Assembly (NCBI GenBank): GCA_002245135.1
Contig: NGBS01000025.1
Span: forward strand, 1 to 64,000
Origin: Proteromonas lacertae
Lineage: Eukaryota; Sar; Bigyra; Opalinata; Proteromonadidae
DNA: 64,000 nt
Reading direction: 5' to 3'
Part shown: one piece after another, positions 13,995 to 44,166 of the stretch
How positions within the stretch are numbered: position 1 is the first letter of the stretch
Layout of the letters: each line of letters opens with the position of its first letter
Notes under the pieces: generated by a model
Told to the model about the DNA's origin: nothing
What the model saw: the letters and a program-made list of their open reading frames with translations, nothing else
Database searches by the model: none
Translations under genes and position numbers: made by a program

Positions 13995-16900
13995 TTAAAC
14001 AATTAAACTCCAAACCATCAAAGCTCTATCATTACCTCCAGTCGAAATAACATATCTATCATCACAACTAAATCTAACCATCGGAACATGGCTAGAATGA
14101 CCAATTCCTTCAAAATACTGATGATCTTTTGTAAGTACTGGATATCTATACAGTCTGACTTTACCAAAATCATCGCCACTAACTAGCAATTCACCACTGT
14201 GACTTCTATCACAGTAATTAATATCTGTACCATCTGAAGTATTAGCCCAAATACCTTGCACAGGCCAGCCTAATACACACGATTGAGTATACCATTTCAC
14301 ATCTTTCAATGAACTTGGTGTATTGATATGTTTTCCTTTCATATCGTAGAATAACAACTCATAATCACCATAAGTAACTTGTAAATATTTACTATCCACT
14401 GAAAAATCAAAATGTGATATATAACTATGACCAGCTTTACAAGTAGCAACACATTTTTGATATGAGTCAGACTGATTGTATATATACACCCTAGTATCAT
14501 GTGTACCAACTGCTAAATATTGTCCATTCGGTGAAAACTTCACATCACTGACATGTGACTTAGATATTTCTAAATTTTGACTAATCACACAGGATTTAAT
14601 ATCACTCTCAATATTTGATTTATTAGTATCGATTTGACTTAATTTCTTAAAATCATAAATAATAAAGCCACCTAAATTCTCATTATCAGTTCCTTTGGTA
14701 CTACCACTCCTCGTTCCACCCATCCTTCCACCTAAACCAACACATAATAATTTACCATCTACAGAATAATCAACAGCTCTAGCCATTCGAGGTAATTTCA
14801 CAATTCCTGTCATTGCTCTCTTGCTAATACTCCACATTCTCAGTGAGTTATCATCACCTACACTGATGATTTTATTACTATCTTTAACAGCTACTGTACA
14901 ACCCCATAATTCATCTTTACAATGTCCAGCTGCTAATCTTTCAATTTTACCTGTTGTCTTATTATCAACATCTATTTCTAATTCTAATATATCACTACCC
15001 ATTGTACCAATTAGTAATTTAGATTCATCATCACTGAAACATAGTGAAGCCAAACCATAATTCAAACAGGTAATATGATTCTCACATATATCAGATAATG
15101 TAATGGAATAAATATCTTTCATATTTCCATCCCAAATAATTATTTTACCTGATTTATCACCTGTTATTACACCATTACTGTATTTATAGATTGCATGAGC
15201 ACCAGCTTTATGATTTTTAATCACTTTATTACATGAATTGCCACTGAATAAATAAAGTGGACCTTTAGAAGTACCACATACCATTGTTGTCTCATTCAAA
15301 GAAGCTGCACAAACTAAAGTTGTAATTGGAGCACTTTTGAACAAAGCTCTTTTCTTTGTAACGGATGAAGCATTCCAGAAATTTCCATGTTTTACACCAC
15401 CACTCATAAATGTTCCATCATTAATCCATTCTACAAATAGCGTATTATTACCATCACCTTTATCACTACCTATTAATTTCACTTTTGTCCAATTATCATT
15501 GGATTTACCATATAATGCAACAGAATGATTACCATCTTGACCAACGGTTGCTAATTTCTTACCATCTGGACTGAAGGATAGTGCTAAAATACCTTTCTTA
15601 TGATATCCTTTGATTGTTGTACATAATTCACCAGTTGAACTATCCCATATATTAATAAAAGGCTTAGGACCAAGCTCACCAGTAGCAACATAGGATAATG
15701 TTGGATCAATACATAGACAAGTAATATCATCTTGATGATCTAAATTGAAGATTTGTGGTGCTTTTGGTGGTTGAATTATACCAACTGCAGCTACATGATA
15801 GACTATATTGCCAGTATTAGTATATCTTAAATTATTACGACTATTCTGAGCTGCATATCCAAATGCAGTGTTTAACTCCAATCTTTCACGAGGTAATGCT
15901 GGATTAACTGGTGGTGGTTTACTGGGTGCAAAAATTGCACCTAACCATGGTTTAACTGCCATGAATTCATCTCCACTGGATGGTATTTGGAATGTTTCTT
16001 TACTACTTACTTCTTTTGTTCTTTCTACGAGTAAACCATTATCATCATCTTCATCTCCACCATCATCATCTAAACTCATTAACAATTGTTCACCTGTCAT
16101 TTGTTCAGTACCATTTCGTTCAAACGACCAAACGATTGTACATCGATCATTACCACCTGTTGTTACTAAATATCCATAATTCTCTCTTGATCGAGGATTA
16201 TTACTATCTCTAATTTGAAATGGATCAAATTTTACATTTTGTACAAAACTACTATGTCCTGTACCTTGTACAAAATTAGATTTCTTCGTTACACATGGAT
16301 AATTAAACAATTTAACCAATCCAAAATCATCAGATGTAGCTAACAAACCTGTTTGATTATCTCTATCTAAGCTATTCACATCAGTTCCATCACTACATTC
16401 TGGCCATATTCCTTGAACCGACCAACCTAATACACAAGTTTGGCTTGACCATTCTGTATTTTTCATTGAAGAACTAGCCGTTATCTGTTTACCACTTGAA
16501 ACATCCCAAAATAATAATTCATAAGCACCACAAGTTGATTGTAAATATTTACCATTTGTTGAGAAATCAAAATGAGTAATATAACTAGAATGTCCACTTA
16601 ATTTCTTAAACAATGTTGGATTATCTCTACTAAAATTATATATATAAATGAAATCATCATGCGAGCCAACAGCAAACTTATCTCCTTTTGGTGTAAATTT
16701 AATATCACTAATCCATGCCTTAGCATCTTGTCTTTTATTCTTATTCCATAACCATTTCTTCTTCTCTTTATTATAAGTAATTACAACTATCCCACCTTCT
16801 CCTCTTACACTTCCTTTACCTACTCTTCCACCTAAACCAGCTACTAATGCATCTCCATTTGGATGATAACAGATTGCTCTGGACATACAATCTAATTGAA

Positions 16901-19900
16901 CTAAATCTTTTTGTCTAAATATATCCAAGTTCCAGAATCTTAGTGTTTGATCATCACCTGCTGTACAGCATTCATCCCATTTCATTGGATTCATTGCTAA
17001 TCCCCATAATTCATCAGCACAATGACCAACAACTAGTGGACCTTCTACTTCATAATTCTTTGATTTTATACCTGTTAATTCTAATACTTCACTACCTTTT
17101 GTACCAATCAATATTTTATTTTCATCTGAATTGTAACAGATACTTCTAATATCACTACTTTGTAAAACAATATTCTTCTTTTTACATAATTCATCTAAGA
17201 TAATAACTTCTTTTTTATTGTTATTTGTATCATATCTTATAATTCTTCCACCAGGATTACTCTTATTTCCAGCAACACCACATAATAAATCATTTTTACC
17301 ACTATATAAACAGTAAACAGCACCCATTTTCAATGAAACAATCTTTGTCAAATTCCTACCAGTGAATATATATAAACTACCATCATTACATCCAACAACA
17401 TGATTGCCACTGTTACTGCAATATTCAATAGATATAAATGTCTGTTGTTTACCTTTACTACCTAATATACCTCTTCTGGATGATATATTTTGACCTTGAA
17501 ATTCCCAAAACTTTATATGTTTAACACCACATTGAGCTACTACATTATTATCATCCCAACATATATCTAACACTTTATTAACATCACCTTTACTTTGAGA
17601 TTTTATCTTTGCTTTTTGCCAATCATAGATAGCAATTGAATGATTATCATCTTGACCAATAGAAGCTAATAAATCACCTTTCTTATTGAATGCAATTAAT
17701 ATAACAGCTCTCTTATGATAATTGGTTAATTCTTTAATCATTTCACCATTTTCAGCATCCCATATCACTATCTTTGGTTTAGCACCTAATTGACCTGTTG
17801 CTACAACTTTTAATTCAGGATGAATAGCTAATGAAACTATATCATCATTATGATTTTGATTGTAATATTGTTTATTCTCTTTTACATGGAAACTTATTCC
17901 TAATGCAGCAGTATGATATATTAAACTCTCATCATAAGAATATCTCAAGTTATTTCTCACATCTTGAGCTTGATAACCAAATGCCCATCTAATATCAATA
18001 GATACATCAGGTGCTGATGGATTAACTGGTGCATGGTTATCTGGTTCATGAATTGCACCTAACCACGGTTTAACTGCCAAGAATTCATCTCCACCATCTA
18101 ATCTATCTTCAAATGGATGAGATAATTCAGTCATATGATCTAAACCATCATCTTCATTATCTTCCACTATATTATTAAATGCATTAGGATCTCGATCATC
18201 ACTCTCATATCTCCATTGAAATACACTTCTATCATTACCACCTGTTGACCATACATACTGTTTAGATTTGAAATATGGTGTAAATCTTACATTAGTGACA
18301 TGACTGGAATGACCAATAAAACTAGAAAATGGACTATTTTTATTTACACATGGATATCTAAATAGTTTAACTAATCCAAAATCATCAGCTGTTACTAATA
18401 CATCTCCTTTGGGTGATAAATCTAAGCTATTCACATCAGTTCCATCACTACATTTTGGCCAAATACCTTGAACTCCCCAACCTAATACACAAGTTTGGCT
18501 TGACCACTTTGTGTCCTTCATACTAGAGCTGGCAGTTATTTGTTTACCATTGTTGGTACTCCAAAATAATAATTCATAAGCACCACAATTTGATTGTAAA
18601 TAACGACTATCTTTAGAGAAATCAATATGAGTGATATAACTAGAATGACCTTTACATCTTGTATTATATTGTAAACCAGGCCATTTATAGAGATAAATAT
18701 AATTATCATGAGAACCAACAGCTATTATTGAACCACAGGGTGAAAATTTAACATCACTAATCCACTGTTTAGAATCATGTCGAGTCTTTGTAATTTTCAA
18801 TGATTTTTCATTAATTGCAATTACCATTCCTTCATATTTATCATTTGTTTTTTTACCTACTCTTCCACCTAATCCACAGATAATATTCTTACCATCTATT
18901 GAATAAGCGCATGCTCTAGACATGGAGGGTAATACTGCTCCTCTAATCTGACTGTAAGTTAAACAATCGAATATTCTAACAGTATGATCATCACCAACTG
19001 TACAACATTCATTTGGTTTGGTTGGATTGATTGCCAAACCCCACAATTCATCATTGTAATGACCTGAGACTATTTTATTTATATATTCAGATGGAATTTT
19101 ATCTCTTTCAGCATTATTATTTATTCTATTGTATTGTATAACATATATTTCACTAAAGATTGTACCAACCAATAATCTATCACCACTTATACACAAGCTT
19201 TTAACTTGAACTTTAGAAGGTGGTACAACAATATTATCTTTCTCAATTAGACAAGTACAGAATTGAGATGTATTTAAATCAATTTGTTTCTTCATTTTCA
19301 TATTCATATCCCAAATAATAATCAAACCATCTTTACCACCAGATAATATCTCAGAGTTATTATTACAATATAATGTATGAACTGTTCCAGTATGTTTTTT
19401 ATATGATTTCTGCGCTGATCGACCCATCCATTGGTATATTTCACCTTTCGCTGTTCCTGTTAAAAATGAATCACTGGATAGTGGTAAAATACACGAAATT
19501 GTTTGTAACTGACATTTACCAAATAAACCATTTTGATTTTTCAATACTTTACCATTTAATGTCCAATATTTTAAGTGTTTTACACCACAAGTGACGAGAG
19601 TTGTATCGCTTAAGAATTTACATTCTAAAGTCTTTTCTTTTGAACCAGTTGCTGTAGAAAACTTCGTAAATGTATTCTTTTGGAAATTCAACTTGTGGAT
19701 AGCGATTGAATGATTATCATCTTGTCCAACACTTGCTAAATAATCACCTGATGGACTAAATGCTACAAATAATATAGCTCTTTGATGAAATCCACCAATA
19801 TCCATTAATATTGTACCTGGATCATTAACATTCCATATTATCACCTTTGGATTCTTTCCAATTTGACCTGTTGCTACATATTCACCAGATGGATGGATTG

Positions 19901-21070
19901 CTAAACATAATACATCATCATCATGACCAAAGTTGAATGACTGCTTCTTTTCATTGATATTTAAACATATACCTACTCCAGCACTGTGATAGACTATCTT
20001 ATTAGGATCTTTGGTGAAATATGCATTTTGATGACTATTCTGAGCAGCATAACCATAAATCCACTCTAAATTCAAAGAAGCATCTGGTGGAGAATTGATA
20101 ATTGGAGGTGGTTTACTCGGTGCATGAATTGCACCTTTCCAAGGTTTAACTGCCATGAATTCATCTCCACCAACAAACTGATCATTAAATTCTGGTTTAC
20201 TCTCTGGAATTTCTTCATTTTCTATCTCTTCACTGATTTGAGAGTATTTGGTTGTACAATTCAAAAACTGTTTGAAGTACTTATTTCCAAATAAGAAATA
20301 ATTAGTAAAGTCCTTGTGACTGACACTCTTAATCCAATTAGGTTTTCCATGTAATGTTGGATCAGAAGCAATTTCACCAAGTAAGTGAAAACAACTATCT
20401 AAAATAGTAGCATCTGATGCTATATCACGCTTATTCAATGAATTCATGTCATCTACAGTGTTTTCATCTGATTGTCTATTGAATTAATATAATTATAATA
20501 ATTTATACTGTAAACTAAGCACATGATGGTACACTTTATCAATACCAGACAATAATGATTTCATTGATAATAAGAACTCTTCTCTTGATAATTGACGGCT
20601 TTCTGTAGTGTTTGAATTGACATTGAAGTGGAATGCATCAAATAAATCTTCAATCTTGATGGAATCATCTAAATCTGCAAATAAGATGAAGAAATAAAGT
20701 AATTCATAAGCATCAAATTTGTTGGGATCTTGTTGCTATAACAAAATGTATAAAATCAATAATAAAATACATAGGGTGTTGAAAATGCTGGTAAAAAGTT
20801 CTTTACTCTTTCTCTAATATCTTCTGGATCATAATTCAAGGCTTTATCAAACCACAATACAACATCATCCTCTGTTACGAAGGTAGCATCTTTGTCTTCG
20901 TTGTTCACTAAACTCTGGTAATAGTTTCTGAAGATGTAAGTCAATTGCTGTTGATTAAAACCAGTAAATGTTGTAATGTCTGAAGTGAGGAATGTCTGTC
21001 TACCATTATCACTGTTCGTACCATTTACATCTTTCTCGTTGTAAACTATGCTTTTTAAAATCTCGTCCAT
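13995..21070 (-). CDS. EML-type protein: EF-hand-like N-terminus plus three HELP-WD40 modules
   Basis: Exons 21070-20771, 20735-20509 and 20475-13995 join across 35- and 33-nt introns to give about 2335 residues. The C-terminal 2000 residues repeat three times the EML/EMAP layout: a HELP motif (GDEFMAVKPWKGAIHAP, GDEFLAVKPWLGAIHEP, GDEFMAVKPWLGAIFAP, near 280, 975 and 1675), then tandem beta-propellers with many GxDDxxxxxW repeats. EML proteins bind tubulin and are found on microtubules and axonemes; triple-module forms correspond to EML5/EML6. The first 185 residues are a helical, EF-hand-like region with degenerate loops (for example FADLDDSIKIEDLF). Whether calcium is bound is unclear. The start at 21070 is the first ATG; the frame is open a little further upstream with no ATG. 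Confidence 0.85.
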
Positions 21071-25835: not shown

Positions 25836-26486
25836 TTATATCTGATCATACTTCAATACAGGTTTCATTATCTTTTCATTCATATTCTTTCTTTTATTAA
25901 TACTTCGAAAGTGAATTGTCATTCCAATTATCAATCCAACTACTGCAACAGATGCTACAACAGCATATATAATTAAAATCACATTATCATTACTCTTTAT
26001 TCTTTCATTTCTTGATTCATCACCATCTGCTAAGACACTAATTCGAATCTGTTGATTATTTGTAATATTTCCACTGATAGAAGTAATAGTGTATATCCTA
26101 TTACTTCTTTCTTTTGGAGAACCAGAGATCTTACCATTAATTACGTTAATTGACATTCCATATGGTAATTCTGGAGTTACTGTAATAGTATCAATATTGT
26201 CATGGATAATTGGAATTATTTCTCCCATTCTACCATTAATTAACACATTCTCATTATAGTCATAAAGTAATGGAATTCTATCACAATCATGAACTTCCAT
26301 CCATAATGCTATTCCATTCTTTTCAATACATGTTCTATATTTATACATATGATCACCACAGTATATTACTGTTGTATGATTGACATGCGTTGCAGGGTAT
26401 TCAGCTTCAGCATTACAGAATAATTGTTGAACATTATCAGCAGTTGATAATGTTAAAAAGATGAAGAATAAGAAAATATATTTCAT
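25836..26486 (-). CDS. small type I membrane protein with He_PIG-like Ig fold (copy A)
   Basis: The protein has 216 residues: an N-terminal signal peptide (MKYIFLFFIFLTLSTA), an ectodomain with a few Cys, a He_PIG-like segment (LPYGMSINVINGKISGSP), one membrane span near residues 170-192 (VILIIYAVVASVAVVGLIIG), and a short basic tail. He_PIG is an Ig-like module common in bacterial and protist surface proteins. The ATG at 26486 directly precedes the signal peptide. The protein is identical to copy B in the other arm of the inverted repeat. Its promoter would lie in the shared spacer. Confidence 0.75.
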   Translation of the reverse strand: MKYIFLFFIFLTLSTADNVQQLFCNAEAEYPATHVNHTTVIYCGDHMYKYRTCIEKNGIALWMEVHDCDRIPLLYDYNENVLINGRMGEIIPIIHDNIDTITVTPELPYGMSINVINGKISGSPKERSNRIYTITSISGNITNNQQIRISVLADGDESRNERIKSNDNVILIIYAVVASVAVVGLIIGMTIHFRSINKRKNMNEKIMKPVLKYDQI

Positions 26487-26717
26487 TTGTATTTTGTGGG
26501 ACAATGTTTGTGAATAAAATATCTATTTGGTGCTTTTGTGTTGTAAAAATGTCTCTCACATATGTTTAACTTTATATTATATTAATTAACACATCTATCT
26601 ATCACATATAAAACTGAATTACAGAAAGGACAGATATTTTCATTGAATGTAGTTTTTCATAATTTTAACACTGATTATTTACACTGTTACTATTATAAGG
26701 ATATTAAACTGTTATAT

Positions 26718-27029: not shown

Positions 27030-27260
27030 ATATAACAGTTTAATATCCTTATAATAGTAACAGTGTAAATAATCAGTGTTAAAATTATGAAAAACTACAT
27101 TCAATGAAAATATCTGTCCTTTCTGTAATTCAGTTTTATATGTGATAGATAGATGTGTTAATTAATATAATATAAAGTTAAACATATGTGAGAGACATTT
27201 TTACAACACAAAAGCACCAAATAGATATTTTATTCACAAACATTGTCCCACAAAATACAA

Positions 27261-27911
27261 ATGAAATATATTTTCTTATTCTTCATCTTTTTAACATTAT
27301 CAACTGCTGATAATGTTCAACAATTATTCTGTAATGCTGAAGCTGAATACCCTGCAACGCATGTCAATCATACAACAGTAATATACTGTGGTGATCATAT
27401 GTATAAATATAGAACATGTATTGAAAAGAATGGAATAGCATTATGGATGGAAGTTCATGATTGTGATAGAATTCCATTACTTTATGACTATAATGAGAAT
27501 GTGTTAATTAATGGTAGAATGGGAGAAATAATTCCAATTATCCATGACAATATTGATACTATTACAGTAACTCCAGAATTACCATATGGAATGTCAATTA
27601 ACGTAATTAATGGTAAGATCTCTGGTTCTCCAAAAGAAAGAAGTAATAGGATATACACTATTACTTCTATCAGTGGAAATATTACAAATAATCAACAGAT
27701 TCGAATTAGTGTCTTAGCAGATGGTGATGAATCAAGAAATGAAAGAATAAAGAGTAATGATAATGTGATTTTAATTATATATGCTGTTGTAGCATCTGTT
27801 GCAGTAGTTGGATTGATAATTGGAATGACAATTCACTTTCGAAGTATTAATAAAAGAAAGAATATGAATGAAAAGATAATGAAACCTGTATTGAAGTATG
27901 ATCAGATATAA
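27261..27911 (+). CDS. small type I membrane protein with He_PIG-like Ig fold (copy B)
   Basis: This is the mirror copy of 25836-26486, with the same 216 residues. It has a signal peptide, a Cys-containing ectodomain with the PYGMSINVINGKISGSP turn typical of He_PIG, one transmembrane helix and a short Lys/Arg-rich tail ending KYDQI. Complete identity of both coding sequences and flanks means a very recent duplication, continuing gene conversion, or an assembly foldback. Confidence 0.75.
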   Translation: MKYIFLFFIFLTLSTADNVQQLFCNAEAEYPATHVNHTTVIYCGDHMYKYRTCIEKNGIALWMEVHDCDRIPLLYDYNENVLINGRMGEIIPIIHDNIDTITVTPELPYGMSINVINGKISGSPKERSNRIYTITSISGNITNNQQIRISVLADGDESRNERIKSNDNVILIIYAVVASVAVVGLIIGMTIHFRSINKRKNMNEKIMKPVLKYDQI

Positions 27912-32093: not shown

Positions 32094-35000
32094 ATGATTG
32101 TTTCACTGCCTTTTCCAGAGCACGGGTATTTCCATTTGTTTTATTTCATAGTTTTCTTGGGAAAAAGAGTGAAGTTTTAGAATATGATACAGAATTGACT
32201 GTTGGTAATGATGTAGTATTAGGTTTTAGAGAAGTTTTATGTTTAAATAGCGATTTTTTCAAAAAGAAGTTGGATCAACCTGTTGATGGTTTTTTTCGTT
32301 ATTCATTTAAATGTTTAGATCCAGTTTATTTCAGATTATACATCAATTATCTTCATTTTGACGAAGTATATTTTGAATAATATATTAATAAATAATAGTT
32401 GGTTATAACTCCAGCAAATATGACAAAACTGTATTGCATTGGCTGCAGTTGTAATGATGTAGATTTACAAGAGAATTGTTTAAAGTATAATCATTTATTT
32501 ATTAATATATATAGATTCTTACAAAATCTAACAGATGGTACAGCTTCGCTCAACAATGATCCACGAACAGCAATGGATATACAAATTCCAATTCATTTCA
32601 AAGATTTTGAACAAATAGTAATGAAGAAAACTATTCCATATTTAGGATTATACACAATTTCAATAGATAGACATTTAAATACAACTGCATTTCGTGTTGA
32701 TAAATCTACAATTTATACATATACATTTCCAATGATGTATTTAAACGAATATTTTCACGATTTAATAAATGCTCATAAAACTCAATTAGGTGCGATACAG
32801 ATGAAAGGTGAAATGGAATTATTCAAATTAATCATCATATATTTGAGTTATGGAAACGTATAATTTAGTTATTATAAATTTATTTTCAATAGATTGAATT
32901 AACCAATGAGAATGTAGTAAGAATCGCATTATTAGCAGAAGAATATGAAATTGCTACATTAGACATACACTGTAGAGAATATATAGTTAAAAATATCGAT
33001 TTACAAATGTGTTGGGAGATATACCCTTATTTAGATAGAGATTGTTTTGCTTCAATTATTATACAAGTTAAGAATGCGATTGTTAAGAACAGTAGTGCAT
33101 TATTCTCTGAAGAATATGTTACACAAGCTCCCTATGAATTATTAGAGTTTCTAATACAACAAGAGAATCTTACAGTTCCAAGAGAAGAGAGTATTTGTGA
33201 TGGTATAATTAAATATTATTTCTATAAGAAAAGAGATATTTCAAAAGATGAATCTGAGAGTATAATTATATTTTTTATATTCTTTTTAATAGAATTATAT
33301 CTGTTATCTGAGCAAATTCGTCGATTATTATATCACGTTCAATATCACAATTTAGCAATGGCTTATGTAGTAGAAAATCTCAAACCTTTACATATATTCA
33401 AGAATGATATATTTCAGTATATTTATGAAGAATGTGTGGATATAAAACACGGTGAAGTTGGATTTGTAAGGCATAGTAGGAATTATACTGGATATGTAAT
33501 TACATGGTGCAGAGAATTGGATAACTTTTTAGATGAGAAAGTATTATCAAGGCAAATACATTTTGATTTAGATAGTATATATATATATATATATAATATA
33601 ATAATAATTATTATTTTATTCAATAGAACCAACAATTGAATTATTATATAAGAATGATGCTGTTGCTCACTTATGTAAATTACTTGAAACATCAGTAGAC
33701 TTACCATTACAAGTAGTTATTGAATTAGTTCAAAATTTCTCAAAATTTCCAGAGTATAGAAATGATATATACAAAACATGTTATAAAGTGATTGTAAGAT
33801 TATATAAATATCATAGAAGTGCAACATTTGATGAATTATTAAAGACAATATTGCATTTAACATCCAAGTATGAAATCATGGAAGAAGCTTATAATGATAT
33901 TGGTCCAGAAATATTAGTTGATATTTACAACAATGGTAATGATCAACATAGATTGAATTTATTGAAATTTTTAAATTCAAACAATATATTAACATGTATA
34001 TATATATATTCAATTTTAATTATATTTTTATTGAAATAGATCAATTATTAACTGATTTAGGTGCTTATGGTGGTACAAATATATTAATTCACTTATTTAC
34101 CTCCAGTAATGAAGAGAGAAAGCATCAAATAATTACGGTTATTGCGAATATTCCAATAGATTATTATTCTTATCATGATATGTTAGAAACAGGGGGTGTA
34201 AGTATGTTATCTTTACTTTGGTACGAATTAAAAGATATTAATAAAAGAAATATTATATTTAAGATATTGCTGAATAGTAGGATGGGAAGTATAAATAATA
34301 TTTTTTTATTTGAATAGTTAATGATCTTGAAGCAATTGCAAATATTGGTGCAATTCCATTATTAGCTCAGTTTTATGTTTCTGGAAAAATCGATTTGAAT
34401 TTAAGAAAGAAAATAATGGAAACAATAATCAAATCAAATCCAAATGTTGTTCAATTAAGAGAAATAGGCCAATTATGTGGAATGGATATATTATTAGAAT
34501 TATTACAAAGCCGATTTACAGAGATAATAAATAATACATATTCTGTATTAAAAGAGCTGAATTGGTCACCAACTGGAGTTGCTTCAATAGATGAAATTAT
34601 AAAAGGATTAGATGTGATGAAGAGTGAAACAATTGATTTAACTAATAATGGTATTACATTTACTATGATTAAAGTGATTATGAAATATTTATTGTATTAT
34701 CCAAAAATTAATACTTTGATTTTATCTGATAATATTTTATTAAATGATGGATTGGAAGTTATTACAGTTGCTTTGAATAAATCATTAGGAAAACAGTTAA
34801 TTTCGTTGTATTTAAGACATAATTATATTAGTGAGTATGGAATGTATTTATTATGTTATTCATTACAATCTGGTGAATGTCCAATGTTGAAAGAACTTGA
34901 TATTTCAAGTATATATATTTATACATTAATACATCTGTATTTTTTGTATTTTCTATCTTTCTCTTTTTTAATGTAATTATATATTTATATATATTCATTT

Positions 35001-38000
35001 AGATAATAATATAAGTGATAAAGGTATTAGTTATCTAGCTTCAGCACTTCAATTCTCACTACAGACATTAGAAGTGATAAATATAAGTGGATGTAATATC
35101 ACTGATAATGGTTTAGAAGTATTTTGTGATAGTATCATAGATTCAGATCATAAAAATATAATTTCAATATATTTATCACATAATAAGATCCAATCATTAA
35201 GCTCCATTTCAAAAATCTTCAAAATGAATGGCTGTCCAAATTTGAGTTTATTGGATTTGTCTTATAATTATATTTCTTCAGATTCTTTCAATATTTTGTT
35301 AAAGACTTTGCTAGATGTTCATTATACTGATATTCAGTATTTATATTATGAAGGAAATAAAGAATTGAATGATAACTATTTGTTCTTATTAATTGATTTG
35401 TTTCAAGCTGGATGTTTGAAGAAATTGAGATATATGGGATTTGAAAGTATTCTTGTTATTTAATTATTTAATTATCGAATAGATACTTCAATTGGTGAAA
35501 CAGGAATAAACTCAATAATACCAAAATTCAAACAACAATATTGTAACAATTTAGAAACAATCACATTGTCAGGAATATTATTAAAAGAAAGAACATTCAA
35601 AATCCTTGCAGATGTTATTAGTTCAGGTAGTTTATCAACATTAAAGAATTTGAATTTATCTCGTTGTCAATTATCTAAAGAAAGTTTGAGAATTTTATGT
35701 GATGCAATAAAGTTGAAGAAAACACCAAACATAAAATCACTTCATTTATCATGTATATATATATATATATATATTCTTATAATAATTATTAAATAGATAA
35801 TGCTTTATCATTATATGGATTTGCATTATTAGAAATGTTACTATCCAGTGAATCACTGCCAAAATTAGAAGCACTTCATGTTGCAGTATGTAATGCAAAA
35901 GAAGAAGGAATAAAACATATTTGTACAGCTTTAAAAGATCATCCGTTATATTCATTAAAAGAATTAAATGTTGCTGGAAATGATATAAGAGATGGTGGGA
36001 TGAGAGTATTAAAAGAAACATTATTATCAAATTCATATCAACAACAAATGGAGTATTTAGATGTGTCTGTTAATAATTATACTGCCAATGGAATGAATCA
36101 TTTGTTATATATAATCACAAAATGTGATAATTTAAAGACAGTAAGAGCGTATGGTAATGAATCAACAGAAACAGGACTTAGAGAATTTCCACAAATTGTA
36201 TCTCAAAAAGTATCACATTCATCTATTGAGAATTTTTATTTCCACTGGATTACAATGGGAAATAATGGATGTATGTCTGTATGTAGAAGTATTGATACTG
36301 GATTCTTTTCAAATATAAAGATTTTGGATTTAGCTGATAATTATTTAGATGATTCTGGAATAACATATTTAGCTGAACCAATAGAACAAAAGCATTTGTA
36401 TAGACTTCAAACCTTAGATTTGAGTCGTATATTTATGCTTTTATAATTTATTATATAGATAATCATGTTACTGTAGAAGGTATTCAATTGGTTTTTAGTG
36501 TTATTACATGTGATACTTGTCCATATTTCCAAAATATATTATTAAGAGATAATTTACTTCATGATAAAGGATTTGAAAAGTTAATTGATTATTTGTCAAT
36601 AAATAATAATCATTTGGTACAGAATATTGATGTTGCATGTAATCAAATCACTTTATTATCAAGAACGATTGAATTATTCAAAGATAATGAATTACCAAAT
36701 CTTTTGCATATTGATTTTAGTGAAAATGAATTTACATTTGAAGAATTGGATAAATTCAGAAAGAATTTTATTAATTTATATAAACAGAAGAAAATATTAG
36801 TTCAATCAATCAAATTTATTAGTATATATATAATTCTTTTATTTTTTTAATAATTATTTCTATAGATATTGGTATTTCTCAAGACAAAATCTACGAATTT
36901 CAAGTTTCTCTTTCACTATATGGTCATCCAATATGTGATATAATTCAATGTAATTCTGAATACAGTGATATGTCAATATATATACCAATTTACAATGAGA
37001 TTCAAAAGGATTTAATTCCAATATTTCAAGCTATTCATGTTACATGTAAATTGTATAGCAACAAAACTATGATGCCATTTGTATTGTTATTCTTATATCA
37101 GTATCTACCAACAATTGCTAATAATCCAGAATTTACAAGTATATTATAATATTATAAATATTAATTCTATTATAGAACCATTATTAAAGGAATTAGGAAG
37201 AATTAAAGATTCAGATATTCAATGCAATTTATACTGCTCTTTAAAGAATTCTGCTTTACAACGAACATTATTAACGACATTAGATTATGATGAAGGTATT
37301 GCAGCAACAGTAAGAAGTTGTTTATGTTATGGCGGTTTCCCACTATTAATAACAGTGTATAATTTAGTGGATGATAAGATCAAGCCTTATTTGTTCAAAG
37401 GTTTAGAATCATGGGATCCAGACAAGAGAACGTTAAACCAATTGCATGATATTACCAATATAACAATAATGATCAGATTATCATTATCAAGAAATGAAAA
37501 AATATCAAAATTAGCTTTAGATATAATAGGTGAATGGGAATTAAAGAGTGAAAATGTGAGTGAAATAATTGAATTAGGAAGAAATCAGTTGATGTTTCAA
37601 ATATTTATTGTTTCAAATTCAAAGAATAAACAGACAATAATGCCATTTATATTACAAATAAGAAAGTTTACAAGAGATGAAGAGCAATTGGATATGACAG
37701 TGAAGAAATATGGTTTAGAATTGATATTAGAGTTTTGGTATTATACATTAGATGAAACAATGAAAAATGATTTGTTTAAATATTTGAATAAGAATCTGAA
37801 TAGTATAAATATATCTCATATTATTCATCTTATTTTTTGTAGATCAAACCATATCTCAATTGGCTGAAATAACAAATTATGAATTATTATTATCATTAAT
37901 AAACACAAATCATAACTTATTAGTTCCATTTTGTAATAAGAAATTAAGAGAATTGAATTGTATAAGTATGTTATTATACTTGAATAGATCATTTGACTGG

Positions 38001-40577
38001 ATATTCTGTTTTGGATGATGAATTAGTTGATGATGATGTAGAAACATTAGATTATGAACGTATAATAATTCCTATTATAATAATCATTCCAATAGATAAG
38101 TATATTAATGATGATATGTTTGAAAAGTTTTGTTCTGCAATAATATTATATAAGAAAATCAAATCGATAAATTTTTCAGATAATATGTTTGACTGTCAAG
38201 CTTTAAGTTATTTTAATATTGCATTAAAAAGAGATATGTTTCATTTACAGTCCTTAGATTTATCATGTATTTATAAATATTTAATTTTATATATTATATA
38301 TATAGATAATAATATTGGTACAGAAGGTTTACAATATCTAGCAAATGGTTTATCAATTGAAAATGGAAATGATTTGACATATTTGAATCTAAGAGCATCA
38401 AATCTAGAAGCTTCATCAATGATGTTTTTATATCAATTATTGAACAATTACACTCCAAATATTGAGTATTTAGATTTATCATGTATTTGTTATTATACTA
38501 TATGTATTTATATTTAATGAAATAGATAATAATATTCAAAGTAATGGAATGAAATGCTTTTCTGTAGAAGAGGAAGATAAGAGTAATAATAAAATTTACA
38601 AATTAAAAACATTAAAAATGATATGTATATAATATTTATATTTATATTTTATTAGTTTGTTTAATAAAAGAAGAAGGTTGTGAATATTTATCAAATCTCT
38701 TATTAAAATGCCCAGATATTATTGAATTAGATTTATATGGTAACTTCATTGAAATAAAAGGTATTGAGTCACTAACAAAATCATTTGGTCAAATAACTGA
38801 GTCAAAATTAGAAATTATTAATTTTGGTAGAAATTTTATTACAGGACAAGGATTAGAATGTTTGAGTGATATTTTTAATAAGAAAATATTAAGAAATTTA
38901 ATAAAGTTAGATTTTTCTAGAAATCCATTAAGAAGTGGTGGTTTGAGCTTATTATTATCGTTTTTAACATATGAAAATTGTCCAAATTTGGTTGATATTA
39001 TGATTGATGGTATTGAAATAGATAGTGATGGTTTAGAAAGCTTGTCAAACTATATGAAAACTGATATTAGAGACAATATAACAAGATTATCATTAAATAA
39101 TTGTATTCTTTTAATATATTAAAATACTATGTAAATAGATCATGATGATTGTTCAATTTGTAAGATATATTGGCGTATATATATAACATTAATATATTAT
39201 TTCTTTAGAATTTCAATTTGGTGATGAAACTCCAATTTACTTCAGGAAATTATTAATGAGAAATCAAACTTCATATTTATGCACAACATTTGTTCAAGCT
39301 AAAAGAAATCAAAGATTGTTGTTATTGGATATAATAAAGACATTTTCCAGTAAGTATTCACATAGTGGAAATAATCAATATTTGCAGCAAATAGAATATC
39401 CACTAAAATCCAATGAAATATTTAAAAGTGAAAGTTTCAATATGTTTAGTGATAGTCTTATTGGTGATATAAATAATAATAACATATGTGAGTGGAAAAA
39501 TCTTAACGAATTGGTGTTAAGTGGAAATATAATTAGTGAATCATCATTTTATATACTATGTGATTCTCTATCCAGAATGAAATCACCAAATTTAAAGAAA
39601 TTATTCCTTAATCGTATAATAAATTAATATAATAAATAAATATGTATAGATTGTGGATTGTCCAGTATTTGTGGAACATTCTTATCTCAATTTATTATTG
39701 GCAAATCGTTTGACAATATGGAAATATTAGAATTAACAGGAAATAATCTAGAAAGTGATGGAATTGAGATTATTGGAGCTTCATTTTTAGTGAGAGAAAA
39801 GTGTAATTTAATTTCATTTGATGTGAATAGTATAATTATATATTATTGTTTTATTAAAATAGATAACAATAATCATGGAAATGGAATAATTCCATTCTTA
39901 ACAGCATTATCACAAAGCAAATTCCCAAATATAAAAACATTGAATATTTCTGGTTCATTAAATGAAATAAAATGTTGGGAAATTTTAGATTTAATACTTC
40001 AAAGTAATACTGATAGAAAGATAGAAACATTAAATATGTCAAGTATAATAATGATTAACAATTATATATTTTAGATAATCCAATTAATCCATTAACAATT
40101 GTTTATACAAGAAATTCAATTCATACCACATCATTTCAATATTTAATAAATTTAGATGTTTCTGGTTGTAATGTAACAAAGAGATATTTAGAAATAATAT
40201 TAAGACAGAGTGATATAGAAAAGAAAACTGCCAATGTATCACAAAGAAAATCAAGACCATCAAGTTCAGTTACTGAGATAAGACCAGTTTTATATCATTT
40301 AGAATTATTGAATATGGGTAATAATCCAATTGAAGATGATGGATTTATGATGTTGATTGGATATATTAACAGACATTTGAGAAATACAGTGAAATACATG
40401 TATTTGTATAACTGTGGAATAAGTGATGTAAGTGATTCAAAAGTGATTAATTATTTATTAGATAGTGCAATTATGGAAGTTGATTTGTATGGTAATAAAT
40501 TAGATACTACTTCAACAAAGGAAATTCAGAATGTAGTAGTAGAAAAGAAGAAAGATTTTAGATTAATTTATATATGA
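32094..40577 (+). CDS. giant BTB-BACK / armadillo-like / LRR protein, 25 exons
   Basis: The model starts at ATG 32094 with a 26-nt first intron (32126-32151) and has 24 introns, 2520 residues and an exactly closing frame. Domains: a BTB-like fold near 20-120, a second BTB near 180-280 ending in GNIELTNENVVRIALLAEEY, a BACK-like helical part, armadillo/HEAT-like helices to about 750, RI-type LRRs (LDLS..NNI..EG) about 755-1423, a second helical block to about 1788, and LRRs again to the end. BTB-BACK proteins are often Cullin-3 adaptors; the LRRs would select a partner. Intron starts: 32366, 32858, 33260, 33575, 33996, 34289, 34909, 35447, 35753, 36427, 36822, 37139, 37803, 37966, 38060, 38267, 38483, 38625, 39103, 39175, 39614, 39830, 40043. 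Intron 1 is phase 2, introns 2-3 phase 0, and all 21 later ones phase 1. Confidence 0.8.
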
Positions 40578-40759: not shown

Positions 40760-41872
40760 TCAATTAATTAATTGATATAACTTTGCATTATCAAACACAC
40801 AGATGTTATTCATTTTGCATTTATTACCATATCTGTCTAGATAATACATATCATTATATCTAGATATGAAGCTGGGAATACTATCACCAACAAACGATAA
40901 TTCTTCTCTTTCAGCTGATACATTTATATCACTAACATGTCTCATATTCATATTTATTGCATCATATTGTCTATAAGTCTGTTCCGGTTTTGAATTGAAA
41001 AAATCCACAATTTCTTCTATACAACTCTTTAATGGAACTATTTTTCTGATTTCTCTATTATCATCTTTATATTTTATTACTATATTATCATCAGATTTAT
41101 AATTTGGCAGTTTAGATAAATAATTGGGTAAATCTTTATCAATTTTGTTTATTATGTCTTCAATTCCTCTTTTTGTAAATGGAAAGTATTTGGCTAGTAA
41201 GGGAGATAGGATAATTGAACTATTTGATGTGATTTTTAAGGATAATGGTGGAGGTATAGTCAGAAGTTTCATTGAAGATTTATTTTCTTTTTCTTTATTC
41301 TTTCTTTGCTGATTTCGAGATGAAGTAAGAGCAAATGGAGGTGAACTTATTCTACATACACATTTATAACAATTTATATTTGAATCATAGATCATTCCAA
41401 AAACATTAAAACAATATTGAGATTCTTTCTTTGGCCATTTTAAATTAAACATCCATGCTTTATATCTTTCATTTAATACGAATTCATTTCGACTATCCTA
41501 TTATATGATTAAATAACAACATTAATTATACATTGGACTTTCCAAAATAAAATGGTGCTTCCATTCTGTCATTCTCATCAAAATAAGTAATAGGCATTAT
41601 TGTACCTACATCAATTTCATTTGGACTTAAATAATATGAAAAATGACCACAAACAAATAATGTATCGTTGCAATTATTATATACTTTTATTCTAATACTT
41701 TGTCCACAAAATCCCGTGCTCTAAAAATCATATTAACGAATTATACTCTATGTTTGAAATTTATATGGTCTGGAAAGCATAAAATATGCTTATTTTGTGT
41801 AGTTTTATTATTTCTTCTATAAGAGCTCTTCCAATTAATGCTTGGGTCAAAGAATAAACTGACGTAGCTCAT
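40760..41872 (-). CDS. unknown protein, left copy of a diverged inverted gene pair
   Basis: Exons 41872-41747, 41720-41532 and 41497-40760 join across 26- and 34-nt introns to give 350 residues. I do not recognise the family. There is no signal peptide or membrane span. A central CRISSPPFALTSSRNQQRK stretch followed by a Lys-rich patch looks like a surface loop and basic segment of a DNA-binding or nuclear protein, but this is only a resemblance. Exons 1, 2 and the first part of exon 3, with both introns, match the right copy almost base for base. The last 100 codons are diverged and lack a 35-codon block. Confidence 0.7.
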
Positions 41873-42948: not shown

Positions 42949-44166
42949 ATGAGCTACGTCAGTTTATTCTTTGACCCAAGCATTAATTGGAAGAGCTCTT
43001 ATAGAAGAAATAATAAAACTACACAAAATAAGCATATTTTATGCTTTCCAGACCATATAAATTTCAAACATAGAGTATAATTCGTTAATATGATTTTTAG
43101 AGCACGGGATTTTGTGGACAAAGTATTAGAATAAAAGTATATAATAATTGCAACGATACATTATTTGTTTGTGGTCATTTTTCATATTATTTAAGTCCAA
43201 ATGAAATTGATGTAGGTACAATAATTCCTATTACTTATTTTGATGAGAATGACAGAATGGAAGCACCATTTTATTTTGGAAAGTCCAATGTATAATTAAT
43301 GTTGTTATTTAATCATATAATAGGATAGTCGAAATGAATTCGTATTAAATGAAAGATATAAAGCATGGATGTTTAATTTAAAATGGCCAAAGAAAGAATC
43401 TCAATATTGTTTTAATGTTTTTGGAATGATCTATGATTCAAATATAAATTGTTATAAATGTGTATGTAGAATAAGTTCACCTCCATTTGCTCTTACTTCA
43501 TCTCGAAATCAGCAAAGAAAGAATAAAGAAAAAGAAAATAAATCTTCAATGAAACTTCTGACTATACCTCCACCATTATCCTTAAAAATCACATCAAATA
43601 GTTCAATTATCCTATCTCCCTTACTAGCCAAATACTTTCCATTTATAAAAAGAGGAATTGAAGACATAATAAACAAAATTGATAAAGATTTACCCAATTA
43701 TTTATCTAAACTGCCAAATTATAAATCTGATGATAATATAGTAATAAAATATAAAGATGATAATAGGAAAGTAGAAAAAATAATGAAATGTGAAAATTGT
43801 ATGCAAGCTTTACTAGAATTCCTAGAATCAAAACCAGAACAGACTTATAGACAGTATGATTTATATAAATTCATATGTTCAAGTCCAGAAGAAAAATACA
43901 ATTATTACAAGACAATGATAAGTATGGATATTAAGTCAGAAAAGTATTTTAGAAAATATGATGGAGTTAGTTGGAATATGAGACATGTTAGTGATATAAA
44001 TGTATCAGCTGAAAGAGAAGAATTATCGTTTGTTGGTGATAGTATTCCTAGTTTTATATCCAAATATAATAATAATATGTACTATTTAGATAAATATGGT
44101 AATAAATGCAAAATGCCACAAATATGCCTGTTAGAGTATTTACAAGTACATCAATTAATTAATTAA
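42949..44166 (+). CDS. unknown protein, right copy of a diverged inverted gene pair
   Basis: Exons 42949-43074, 43101-43289 and 43324-44166 (introns of 26 and 34 nt) give 385 residues. It equals the left copy through codon KYKDDNR in exon 3, apart from one Thr/Ile change. It then carries a different segment (KCENCMQALLEFLE...), an extra 35-residue block (KFICSSPEEKYNYYKTMI... region), then a shared MRHVSDINVSAE patch and a moderately diverged tail. No known domain was identified; the SPPFALTSSRNQQRK loop and basic patch are shared with the left copy. The mosaic suggests duplication with gene conversion over the 5' part and independent change in the 3' part. Confidence 0.7.

What the first reader, a model, noticed from the sequence alone, without database searches (positions are those of the whole stretch)
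33260..40074. Twenty-one consecutive introns, all phase 1
In the BTB/armadillo/LRR gene, introns 4 to 24 all split a codon after the first base; I checked this by exon arithmetic. The introns in the LRR blocks fall at the same spot of the repeat (after LDLS, before the N of the NNxI turn), so exons start with AT-AAT. The first three introns have other phases. Chance would give this far less than once in a billion. Exon-wise repeat duplication explains the LRR part, but the armadillo-like part shares the phase too.
Basis: seen in the sequence. Interest (0 to 1): 0.75.

Follow-up and report, generated by a model that had tools for sequence, protein, structure and literature searches.

The report
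Repeat-protein gene with same-phase introns
A protist gene built of two kinds of protein repeat has 21 predicted introns in a row that all cut codons after the first letter, most likely because introns at repeat borders were copied along with the repeats, a gene architecture known from plants, animals and ciliates.

Summary
Independence would give 1e-10 to 1e-12, but the introns are not independent. Ten sit exactly at one LRR position (LxxLxLS|N) learned from other genes of the genome (P 6e-14). Six in the armadillo-like parts are 3, 2, 5 and 1 repeat lengths apart. Other LRR and ARM genes read here have mostly phase-1 introns at these registers, against 48 of 179 in the remaining sampled genes; some have other phases. 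One ankyrin gene shows the same architecture in phase 0, with similar exons. So the phase goes with the repeat family. Two families agree by chance with probability 0.39, so the armadillo part needs no special cause. Rice LRR-kinases, human NLRP3 and Tetrahymena LRR genes are built alike. New member of a known kind. Repeat duplication with intron loss is favoured; repeated intron gain at a preferred codon is not excluded.

The parts
32094..40577 (+). predicted BTB-BACK / ARM-like / LRR / ARM-like / LRR gene, 2508 aa, 25 introns
   Evidence: model; Pfam: BTB 2.5e-5 above its cut-off; BACK 5e-4, Arm 5e-4 and ARMC5 1.4e-4 below theirs; LRR_6 7e-15 and 7e-17
32126..32151 (+). upstream intron, phase 2 (weak score)
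32366..32398 (+). upstream intron, phase 0
32485..32514 (+). upstream intron, phase 2 (3n and stop-free, weaker)
32858..32892 (+). upstream intron, phase 0; by eye the same BTB position and phase as an intron of another BTB gene, L006
33260..33292 (+). phase-1 intron 1 of the run; end of BACK-like part, no repeat register found; 3n and stop-free
33575..33626 (+). phase-1 intron 2, ARM register probable (rank 71 of 2508, not the local best)
33996..34039 (+). phase-1 intron 3, ARM register (rank 91, local best; 123 aa after the last)
34289..34317 (+). phase-1 intron 4, ARM register (rank 4, local best; 83 aa after the last)
34909..35002 (+). phase-1 intron 5, exact LRR register LDIS|N
   Evidence: rank 1 of 2508
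35447..35482 (+). phase-1 intron 6, exact LRR register
   Evidence: rank 17
35753..35796 (+). phase-1 intron 7, exact LRR register
   Evidence: rank 11
36427..36458 (+). phase-1 intron 8, exact LRR register
   Evidence: rank 19
36822..36865 (+). phase-1 intron 9, LRR register by eye only (rank 103, not the local best), border to second ARM-like part
37139..37175 (+). phase-1 intron 10, ARM spacing only (ARM profile rank 1922)
37803..37842 (+). phase-1 intron 11, ARM register probable (rank 43, not the local best; 209 aa after the last)
37960..37987 (+). phase-1 intron 12, ARM spacing only (39 aa after the last; ARM profile rank 2106)
38060..38095 (+). phase-1 intron 13, LRR register by eye, downstream half only (rank 374); 3n and stop-free
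38267..38305 (+). phase-1 intron 14, exact LRR register LDLS|YNNI; 3n and stop-free
   Evidence: rank 4
38483..38525 (+). phase-1 intron 15, exact LRR register
   Evidence: rank 2
38625..38655 (+). phase-1 intron 16, exact LRR register
   Evidence: rank 23
39103..39138 (+). phase-1 intron 17, one codon off the LRR register
39175..39208 (+). phase-1 intron 18, after a 36-nt exon; no register
39614..39649 (+). phase-1 intron 19, exact LRR register
   Evidence: rank 16
39830..39862 (+). phase-1 intron 20, exact LRR register; 3n and stop-free
   Evidence: rank 38
40043..40074 (+). phase-1 intron 21, exact LRR register LNMS|N
   Evidence: rank 9

Best explanation
The gene codes for a BTB protein, found only in this genome so far, whose ARM and LRR arrays grew by duplication of repeat units whose border carried an intron. 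In the LRR family the border intron split the codon just before the conserved N of LxxLxLS|N; in the ARM family it lay between the third helix of one repeat and the first of the next; both happened to be phase 1. Every repeat or block of repeats copied with such introns at both ends has a length divisible by 3, so copying keeps the frame and reproduces the phase. Later intron loss at most borders left introns at a subset, so exons now hold whole numbers of repeats (ARM exons of 3, 2, 5 and 1 repeats; LRR exons of about 1 to 7). Shown here: the predicted phase run, the LRR register, the phase-1 majority in other LRR and ARM genes, the stability of positions between paralogues, and similar exons with border introns in one ankyrin gene. 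Inferred: the duplication-plus-loss history of this particular gene, the ARM fold and the scaffold role.
For: A position profile of 32 LRR introns from 8 other genes ranks 10 of 21 target introns in the top 38 of 2508 residues, each the best local position (P 6e-14, the cut set at the rank of the weakest of the ten). By a motif rule over all 156 predicted genes fetched, 11 are LRR genes, and 18 of the 21 introns inside their arrays (in 8 of the 11; L044-L046 are paralogues) are phase 1, against 48 of 179 in the remaining sampled genes (P 2e-7). In 5 ARM genes 21 of 24 introns are phase 1, 19 of them inside the arrays; with the dissenting ARM gene L043, 21 of 27 (P 5e-7). ARM-part introns lie 123, 83, 209 and 39 aa apart, i.e. 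2.96, 2.0, 5.04 and 0.94 x 41.5 (P about 2.5e-4; four distances chosen by me, see against); 4 of 7 introns of those parts rank in the top 100 of the ARM profile (P 8e-5, cut chosen by me). Four LRR paralogues 52-61% identical share 3 to 6 introns at identical columns and phase. Ankyrin gene L047: 6 of 7 introns phase 0, 4 of them at one ankyrin position (AxxN|), exons 33-43% identical, some end to end. Junction DNA has little shared sequence: at most 0.7 bit at any position for ARM introns and 0.3 bit for ordinary phase-1 introns.
Against: No exon-bounded similarity remains between the LRR exons of this gene; matches among exons start and end anywhere, and introns of adjacent exons are no more alike than others. 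Of 35 LRR-register sites that I kept from the 45 best (ten dropped by eye), only 10 carry an intron; these have A as second codon base in 9 of 10 cases against 10 of 25 without intron (P 0.01), which also fits gain at a preferred codon. The other distances next to the ARM-like parts, 94, 197, 91 and 24 aa, include neighbouring domains and are not multiples. Introns 33260 and 39175 lie in no register; 37139 and 37960 score low in the ARM profile. The ARM-unit HMM gives only negative scores on this protein, and the single-sequence fold of one ARM exon gives only non-significant beta-catenin matches. L041_-2737 (LRR) has phase-0 introns in its array, L029 one of phase 2, and L043 (ARM) none of phase 1. 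Another ankyrin gene, L039, has a phase-2 intron in its array, so one phase per ankyrin family is not shown, and ankyrin repeats resemble each other anyway.
Confidence: 0.7

Rival explanations
1. The repeats were already in place and introns were gained many times in parallel at one favoured codon of the repeat (NAT codons such as the N of LS|N), so the common phase reflects target preference and not copying.
For: Intron-bearing LRR sites are NAT codons in 9 of 10 cases; sites without intron have A at codon position 2 in 10 of 25 (P 0.01, sites picked by me). Introns occupy a minority of borders. No exon-bounded duplicates remain in this gene.
Against: Weak junction motifs in ARM and other phase-1 introns; the LRR gene L031 with similar LDLS-N motifs has no intron in its array. 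Exon +1 A is also common after ordinary phase-1 introns (50 of 80), so the codon effect may only be splicing constraint. Paralogue positions are stable.
Confidence: 0.2
2. ARM and LRR cassettes share phase 1 because the gene was assembled by exon shuffling, for which only cassettes of one phase class are compatible; the shared phase is then selected and not coincidence.
For: The protein alternates ARM-like and LRR stretches, and the changes near 36822-37139 and 37960-38060 lie at or between phase-1 introns (domain limits by eye).
Against: Sharing by chance has probability 0.39. The first ARM-to-LRR change lies inside exon 34318-34908. I did not search for other ARM-LRR composite genes.
Confidence: 0.08
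3. The phase run is a by-product of the gene-finding and several introns are not real.
For: 4 of 21 are multiples of 3 without stop; no RNA evidence; a weak phase-2 candidate lies inside the run.
Against: 17 of 21 must be removed to keep the frame. The splice model uses intron bases only; in a control with one real intron put at random into each of 6 intronless ORFs, 30 times, it recovered 180 of 180 at the exact place, all three phases (an earlier, faulty version gave 59 of 125).
Confidence: 0.02

Closest known systems
Rice/plant LRR receptor-kinase genes (PMC3050792; abstract and passages seen)
   Same: introns of one phase at one position of the xxLxLxx motif, separating one or more whole LRRs; explained there by exon duplication
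   Different: phase 2 at the first Leu of xxLxLxx, with many 72-nt one-repeat exons; here phase 1 just before the N, exons of about 1 to 7 repeats
Human NLRP3 and other NLR LRR domains (PMC6642158; abstract and passages seen)
   Same: exon border always at the same place of the LRR beta-strand; two-repeat exons. One exon here is also 171 nt (57 aa) and four are 57-60 aa
   Different: NLRP3 LRR exons are all exactly 171 bp; here lengths vary. The phase is not stated in the passages I saw
Tetrahymena 90-bp-exon LRR genes (PMC6564038; abstract and passages seen)
   Same: protist with long runs of one intron phase in LRR genes, read as clonal expansion of exons
   Different: phase 2, exactly 90-bp exons, thousands of genes; here phase 1, no fixed exon length, and ARM repeats share it
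Ankyrin gene L047 of the same genome
   Same: border introns mostly of one phase, 4 of 7 at one repeat position
   Different: phase 0, with similarity between exons still visible in the protein

Membership tests
LRR genes with exon-modular arrays | introns at one fixed position of the LRR | tested here: met
   10 of 21 exact; 3 more by eye or one codon off
LRR genes with exon-modular arrays | array introns of one phase | tested here: met
   21 of 21 in the run, if the weak candidate 34808-34831 is not an intron
LRR genes with exon-modular arrays | exons hold whole numbers of repeats | tested here: met
   LRR introns 148, 90, 210, 121, 57, 59, 33, 149, 147 (12+135), 60, 60 aa apart; exception: the 36-nt exon at 39139-39174
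LRR genes with exon-modular arrays | exons recognisable as duplicates of each other | tested here: inconclusive
   only generic LRR similarity, not exon-bounded
Tetrahymena 90-bp LRR genes | exons of exactly 90 bp, phase-2 introns | tested here: not met
   LRR-part exons of 36 to 630 nt, phase 1
Introner-type mobile introns | introns similar in sequence to each other | tested here: inconclusive
   over 25 introns mean pair score 9.75 against 8.99 for base-shuffled introns (sd of means 0.13), so somewhat alike, perhaps from TA runs; best pair 27 (introns 33575 and 35753); adjacent pairs not more alike, 9.79 against 9.74
Armadillo repeat proteins | Pfam Arm match above the curated cut-off | tested here: not met
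   Arm 20.5 bits against 20.6, ARMC5 21.8 against 79.9
Armadillo repeat proteins | all-helical repeats of about 42 residues | tested here: inconclusive
   exon spacing fits; the 122-aa exon is predicted all-helical at pLDDT 67; Foldseek: first hit a designed repeat protein, beta-catenin next, E 0.33 or worse; the other exon folded, 208 aa, was unusable at pLDDT 43

The most novel reading that the evidence does not exclude
In this genome introns are gained repeatedly at one codon of a repeat motif (NAT before the conserved turn), so that two unrelated folds, ARM and LRR, each acquired same-phase introns without exon duplication; intron gain would then be steered by repeat-protein codon context.
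Probability: 0.15. Interest if true: 0.55.

Novelty: new member of a known kind. Interest (0 to 1): 0.3.

Why it matters
It shows that a striking intron statistic in one gene reduces to the history of its repeats, and that LRR, ARM and ankyrin genes of one protist genome can each carry border introns at a register of their own. That makes this genome a good place to separate repeat duplication from parallel intron gain: the same register can be compared across repeats with and without introns, and across families of different phase.

Tried and rejected
Genome-wide phase-1 bias: rejected, 93/48/38 for phases 0/1/2 in the remaining sampled genes. General tendency of introns in one gene to share a phase: weak, 8 of 49 other genes with three or more introns are uniform against 4.8 expected (P 0.08). 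Recent exon duplication in this gene: no exon-bounded matches. Close paralogue of the first LRR part elsewhere in the genome: none seen; best match outside this gene E 3.5e-13 at 28% identity (676-aa query, 66 of 319 candidates scored). Orthologue among 5.8 billion proteins: none seen, 5 hits of 5996 candidates, four fish NLR entries and one unnamed, best coverage 25% (only proteins of similar length sharing short words can be found). Host identity: adenylosuccinate synthetase hits are mixed, best 58% unnamed, then 54% an entry labelled Plutella, 56% Blastocystis and many fungi at 53-57%; not settled. Structure of exon 37178-37801: pLDDT 43, unusable. NCBIfam scan of the first 734 aa: nothing. 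Paper searches: nothing found; listings (8 papers; 1; 5; 6) seen, none opened; of 15 papers listed two were opened by passages; one search gave the Trichomonas paper, passages seen; the NLRP3 paper was opened by its DOI from memory.

Corrections of my own steps: one search failed (coordinate slip); one search used a wrong first exon and frame, replaced; the simulation gave 59 of 125 exact, I believe because start positions were mislabelled for ORFs near region ends; it was replaced (180 of 180, 6 ORFs, one intron each). The gene finder was seeded with introns of this gene (five of them kept in training); retrained on the sample alone it gives 94/66/40 for the whole sample. The three LRR/ARM genes of the random sample (17 of 17 phase 1) were first noticed through a filter on phase 1, so that P value is biased; the objective count is, for LRR only. 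The chosen ARM list left out L043; it is counted. Loci L041-L046 were chosen by me from domain hits, mostly for short open frames, not for phase; L047 for clustered ankyrin hits.
Full report
What is there. The window lies in a 50.2-Mb, AT-rich genome of unknown name, eukaryotic to judge by its introns. Between 32094 and 40577 on the plus strand a single spliced frame of 2508 aa is open if 25 short introns are removed. The first four have phases 2, 0, 2, 0; the following 21, from 33260 to 40074, all begin GTA, end TAG and have phase 1. Seventeen of the 21 must be removed to keep the frame open; four are multiples of three without a stop. Pfam finds BTB above its cut-off, BACK, Arm and ARMC5 below theirs, and LRR_6 strongly in both LRR stretches. 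A weak 24-nt phase-2 candidate inside the run (34808-34831) was rejected because it would delete an LRR core. No RNA evidence was available.

Is it chance. A small gene finder with codon usage for exons and a splice model built on intron bases only, so that exon bases at the junction cannot steer the phase, was run on 20 regions of 10 kb taken by coordinate: 197 introns, phases 93/67/37. Leaving out three LRR or ARM genes, the sample gives 93/48/38. Retrained on the sample alone it gives 94/66/40 for the whole sample. A control with single real introns placed at random in six intronless ORFs was recovered 180 of 180 with the right phase; a first, faulty version of this control gave 59 of 125. 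With these rates 21 of 21 has a probability of 1e-10 to 1e-12 if introns were independent. They are not.

The LRR part. A residue profile made from 32 phase-1 introns of eight other LRR genes of this genome was scored over all 2508 residues. Ten target introns fall in the top 38 and are the best position in their neighbourhood (hypergeometric P 6e-14 with the cut at the weakest of the ten). Three more (36822, 38060, 39103) fit by eye or are one codon off. Distances between successive LRR introns are 148, 90, 210, 121, 57, 59, 33, 149, 147 (12+135), 60 and 60 aa, near whole numbers of LRRs. In the eight chosen LRR genes 32 of 35 introns are phase 1. By an objective motif rule over all 156 predicted genes, 11 are LRR genes and 18 of 21 introns inside their arrays are phase 1 (P 2e-7). 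The exceptions are two phase-0 introns in L041_-2737 and one phase-2 intron in L029. LRR gene L031 has no intron in its array.

The armadillo-like part. In five other ARM genes 21 of 24 introns are phase 1; 19 of these 21 lie in the ARM arrays, after the third helix of the repeat by eye, the other two are early introns of L042. One more ARM gene, L043, has only phases 0 and 2, one of them near an ARM border in phase 0, and two importin-like ARM genes (L033, L034; importin by recall) have no intron above the score cut in their arrays. In this gene four distances between introns of the ARM-like parts are 123, 83, 209 and 39 aa, 2.96, 2.0, 5.04 and 0.94 times 41.5; the distances 94, 197, 91 and 24 at their edges, which include other domains, were left out. 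Four of seven introns in those parts rank in the top 100 of the ARM profile (P 8e-5). The fold itself is weakly supported: Arm is 0.1 bit under its cut-off, an HMM of ARM units gives only negative scores, and the predicted structure of exon 33629-33994 is all-helical with pLDDT 67 and has beta-catenin among its best but non-significant matches.

Why one phase for two folds. With the phase rates of the remaining genes, two families agree by chance with probability 0.39. The one intron-rich ankyrin gene read here (L047) has phase 0 in 6 of 7 introns, four of them at the same ankyrin position, and its exons are 33-43% identical, some from end to end; ankyrin repeats resemble each other in general, so part of this is not exon history. 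Another ankyrin gene (L039) has a phase-2 intron in its array. So this genome has same-phase repeat genes in more than one phase. Two introns of the run, 33260 and 39175, fit no register; both being phase 1 has probability 0.07 to 0.12.

How it arose. The best-supported account is duplication of repeat units carrying border introns, followed by loss of many introns. For it speak the fixed register, the phase-1 majority in other LRR and ARM genes, the conservation of intron columns between paralogues that are 52-61% identical, the weak junction motif outside what the LRR protein motif imposes, and the similar exons of the ankyrin gene. Against it: no exon-bounded similarity is left in this gene, and LRR sites with introns have A as second codon base more often than sites without (9 of 10 against 10 of 25, P 0.01), which fits parallel gain at a preferred codon as well as splicing constraint. 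I therefore keep parallel gain at about 0.2.

Known precedents. Rice LRR-kinases have phase-2 introns at one LRR position, read as exon duplication (PMC3050792, abstract and passages). Human NLRP3 has 171-bp exons with the border always at the same place of the strand (PMC6642158, passages). Tetrahymena has nearly 50,000 90-bp exons, more than 96% of them separated by phase-2 introns (PMC6564038, abstract and passages). In Trichomonas, four of six introns in ARM-type genes are phase 2 and two lie in the 5' UTR (PMC12316389, passages). What differs here is phase 1, uneven exon lengths, and the occurrence in two repeat folds of one gene. I searched for papers joining LRR with phase 1 introns or with intron phase and duplication, and ARM with intron phase, and saw no report of this combination in the listings; that is a statement about those searches only.

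Function. The domain order suggests a cytosolic scaffold, with BTB as partner or ubiquitin-ligase adaptor and the arrays as binding surfaces; this is inference from family knowledge. No orthologue was seen among 5.8 billion proteins.

Noticed in passing
25836-26522 (-) and 27225-27911 (+): Inverted pair of ORFs whose 228-aa translations look identical, i.e. an inverted duplication with about 0.7 kb between the copies.
   Followed up: no
40760-41497 (-) and 43324-44166 (+): Second inverted pair of closely similar ORFs directly downstream of the gene, alike over long stretches but different towards the C-terminal part.
   Followed up: no
13995-20483 (-): One open 2162-aa frame with what look like three tandem WD-repeat modules (EML-like by my own recall): a contrast to the intron-rich LRR/ARM genes.
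   Followed up: no
32858-32892 and L006_+1414: The phase-0 intron in the BTB domain lies, by eye, at the same place as in another BTB gene of the genome (LSYGN|IELTNE and MHGFN|VELNQD), an intron shared between distant paralogues.
   Followed up: partly
L047 (C283:241901-245900): Ankyrin gene with 6 of 7 introns in phase 0 and exons 33-43% identical to each other.
   Followed up: yes
39139-39174: 36-nt exon between two introns in a stretch where the LRR pattern is weak; by eye, joining the outer splice sites directly would create a stop.
   Followed up: partly
introns of the fetched regions: First exon base after phase-1 introns is G in 1 of 80 cases in ordinary genes (5 of 32 in LRR, 2 of 21 in ARM genes) but in 22 of 147 phase-0 and 8 of 63 phase-2 introns.
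   Followed up: no
L004_-459: Another BTB gene (found through the BTB search) with five predicted introns above the score cut, all phase 1, outside my LRR/ARM set.
   Followed up: no
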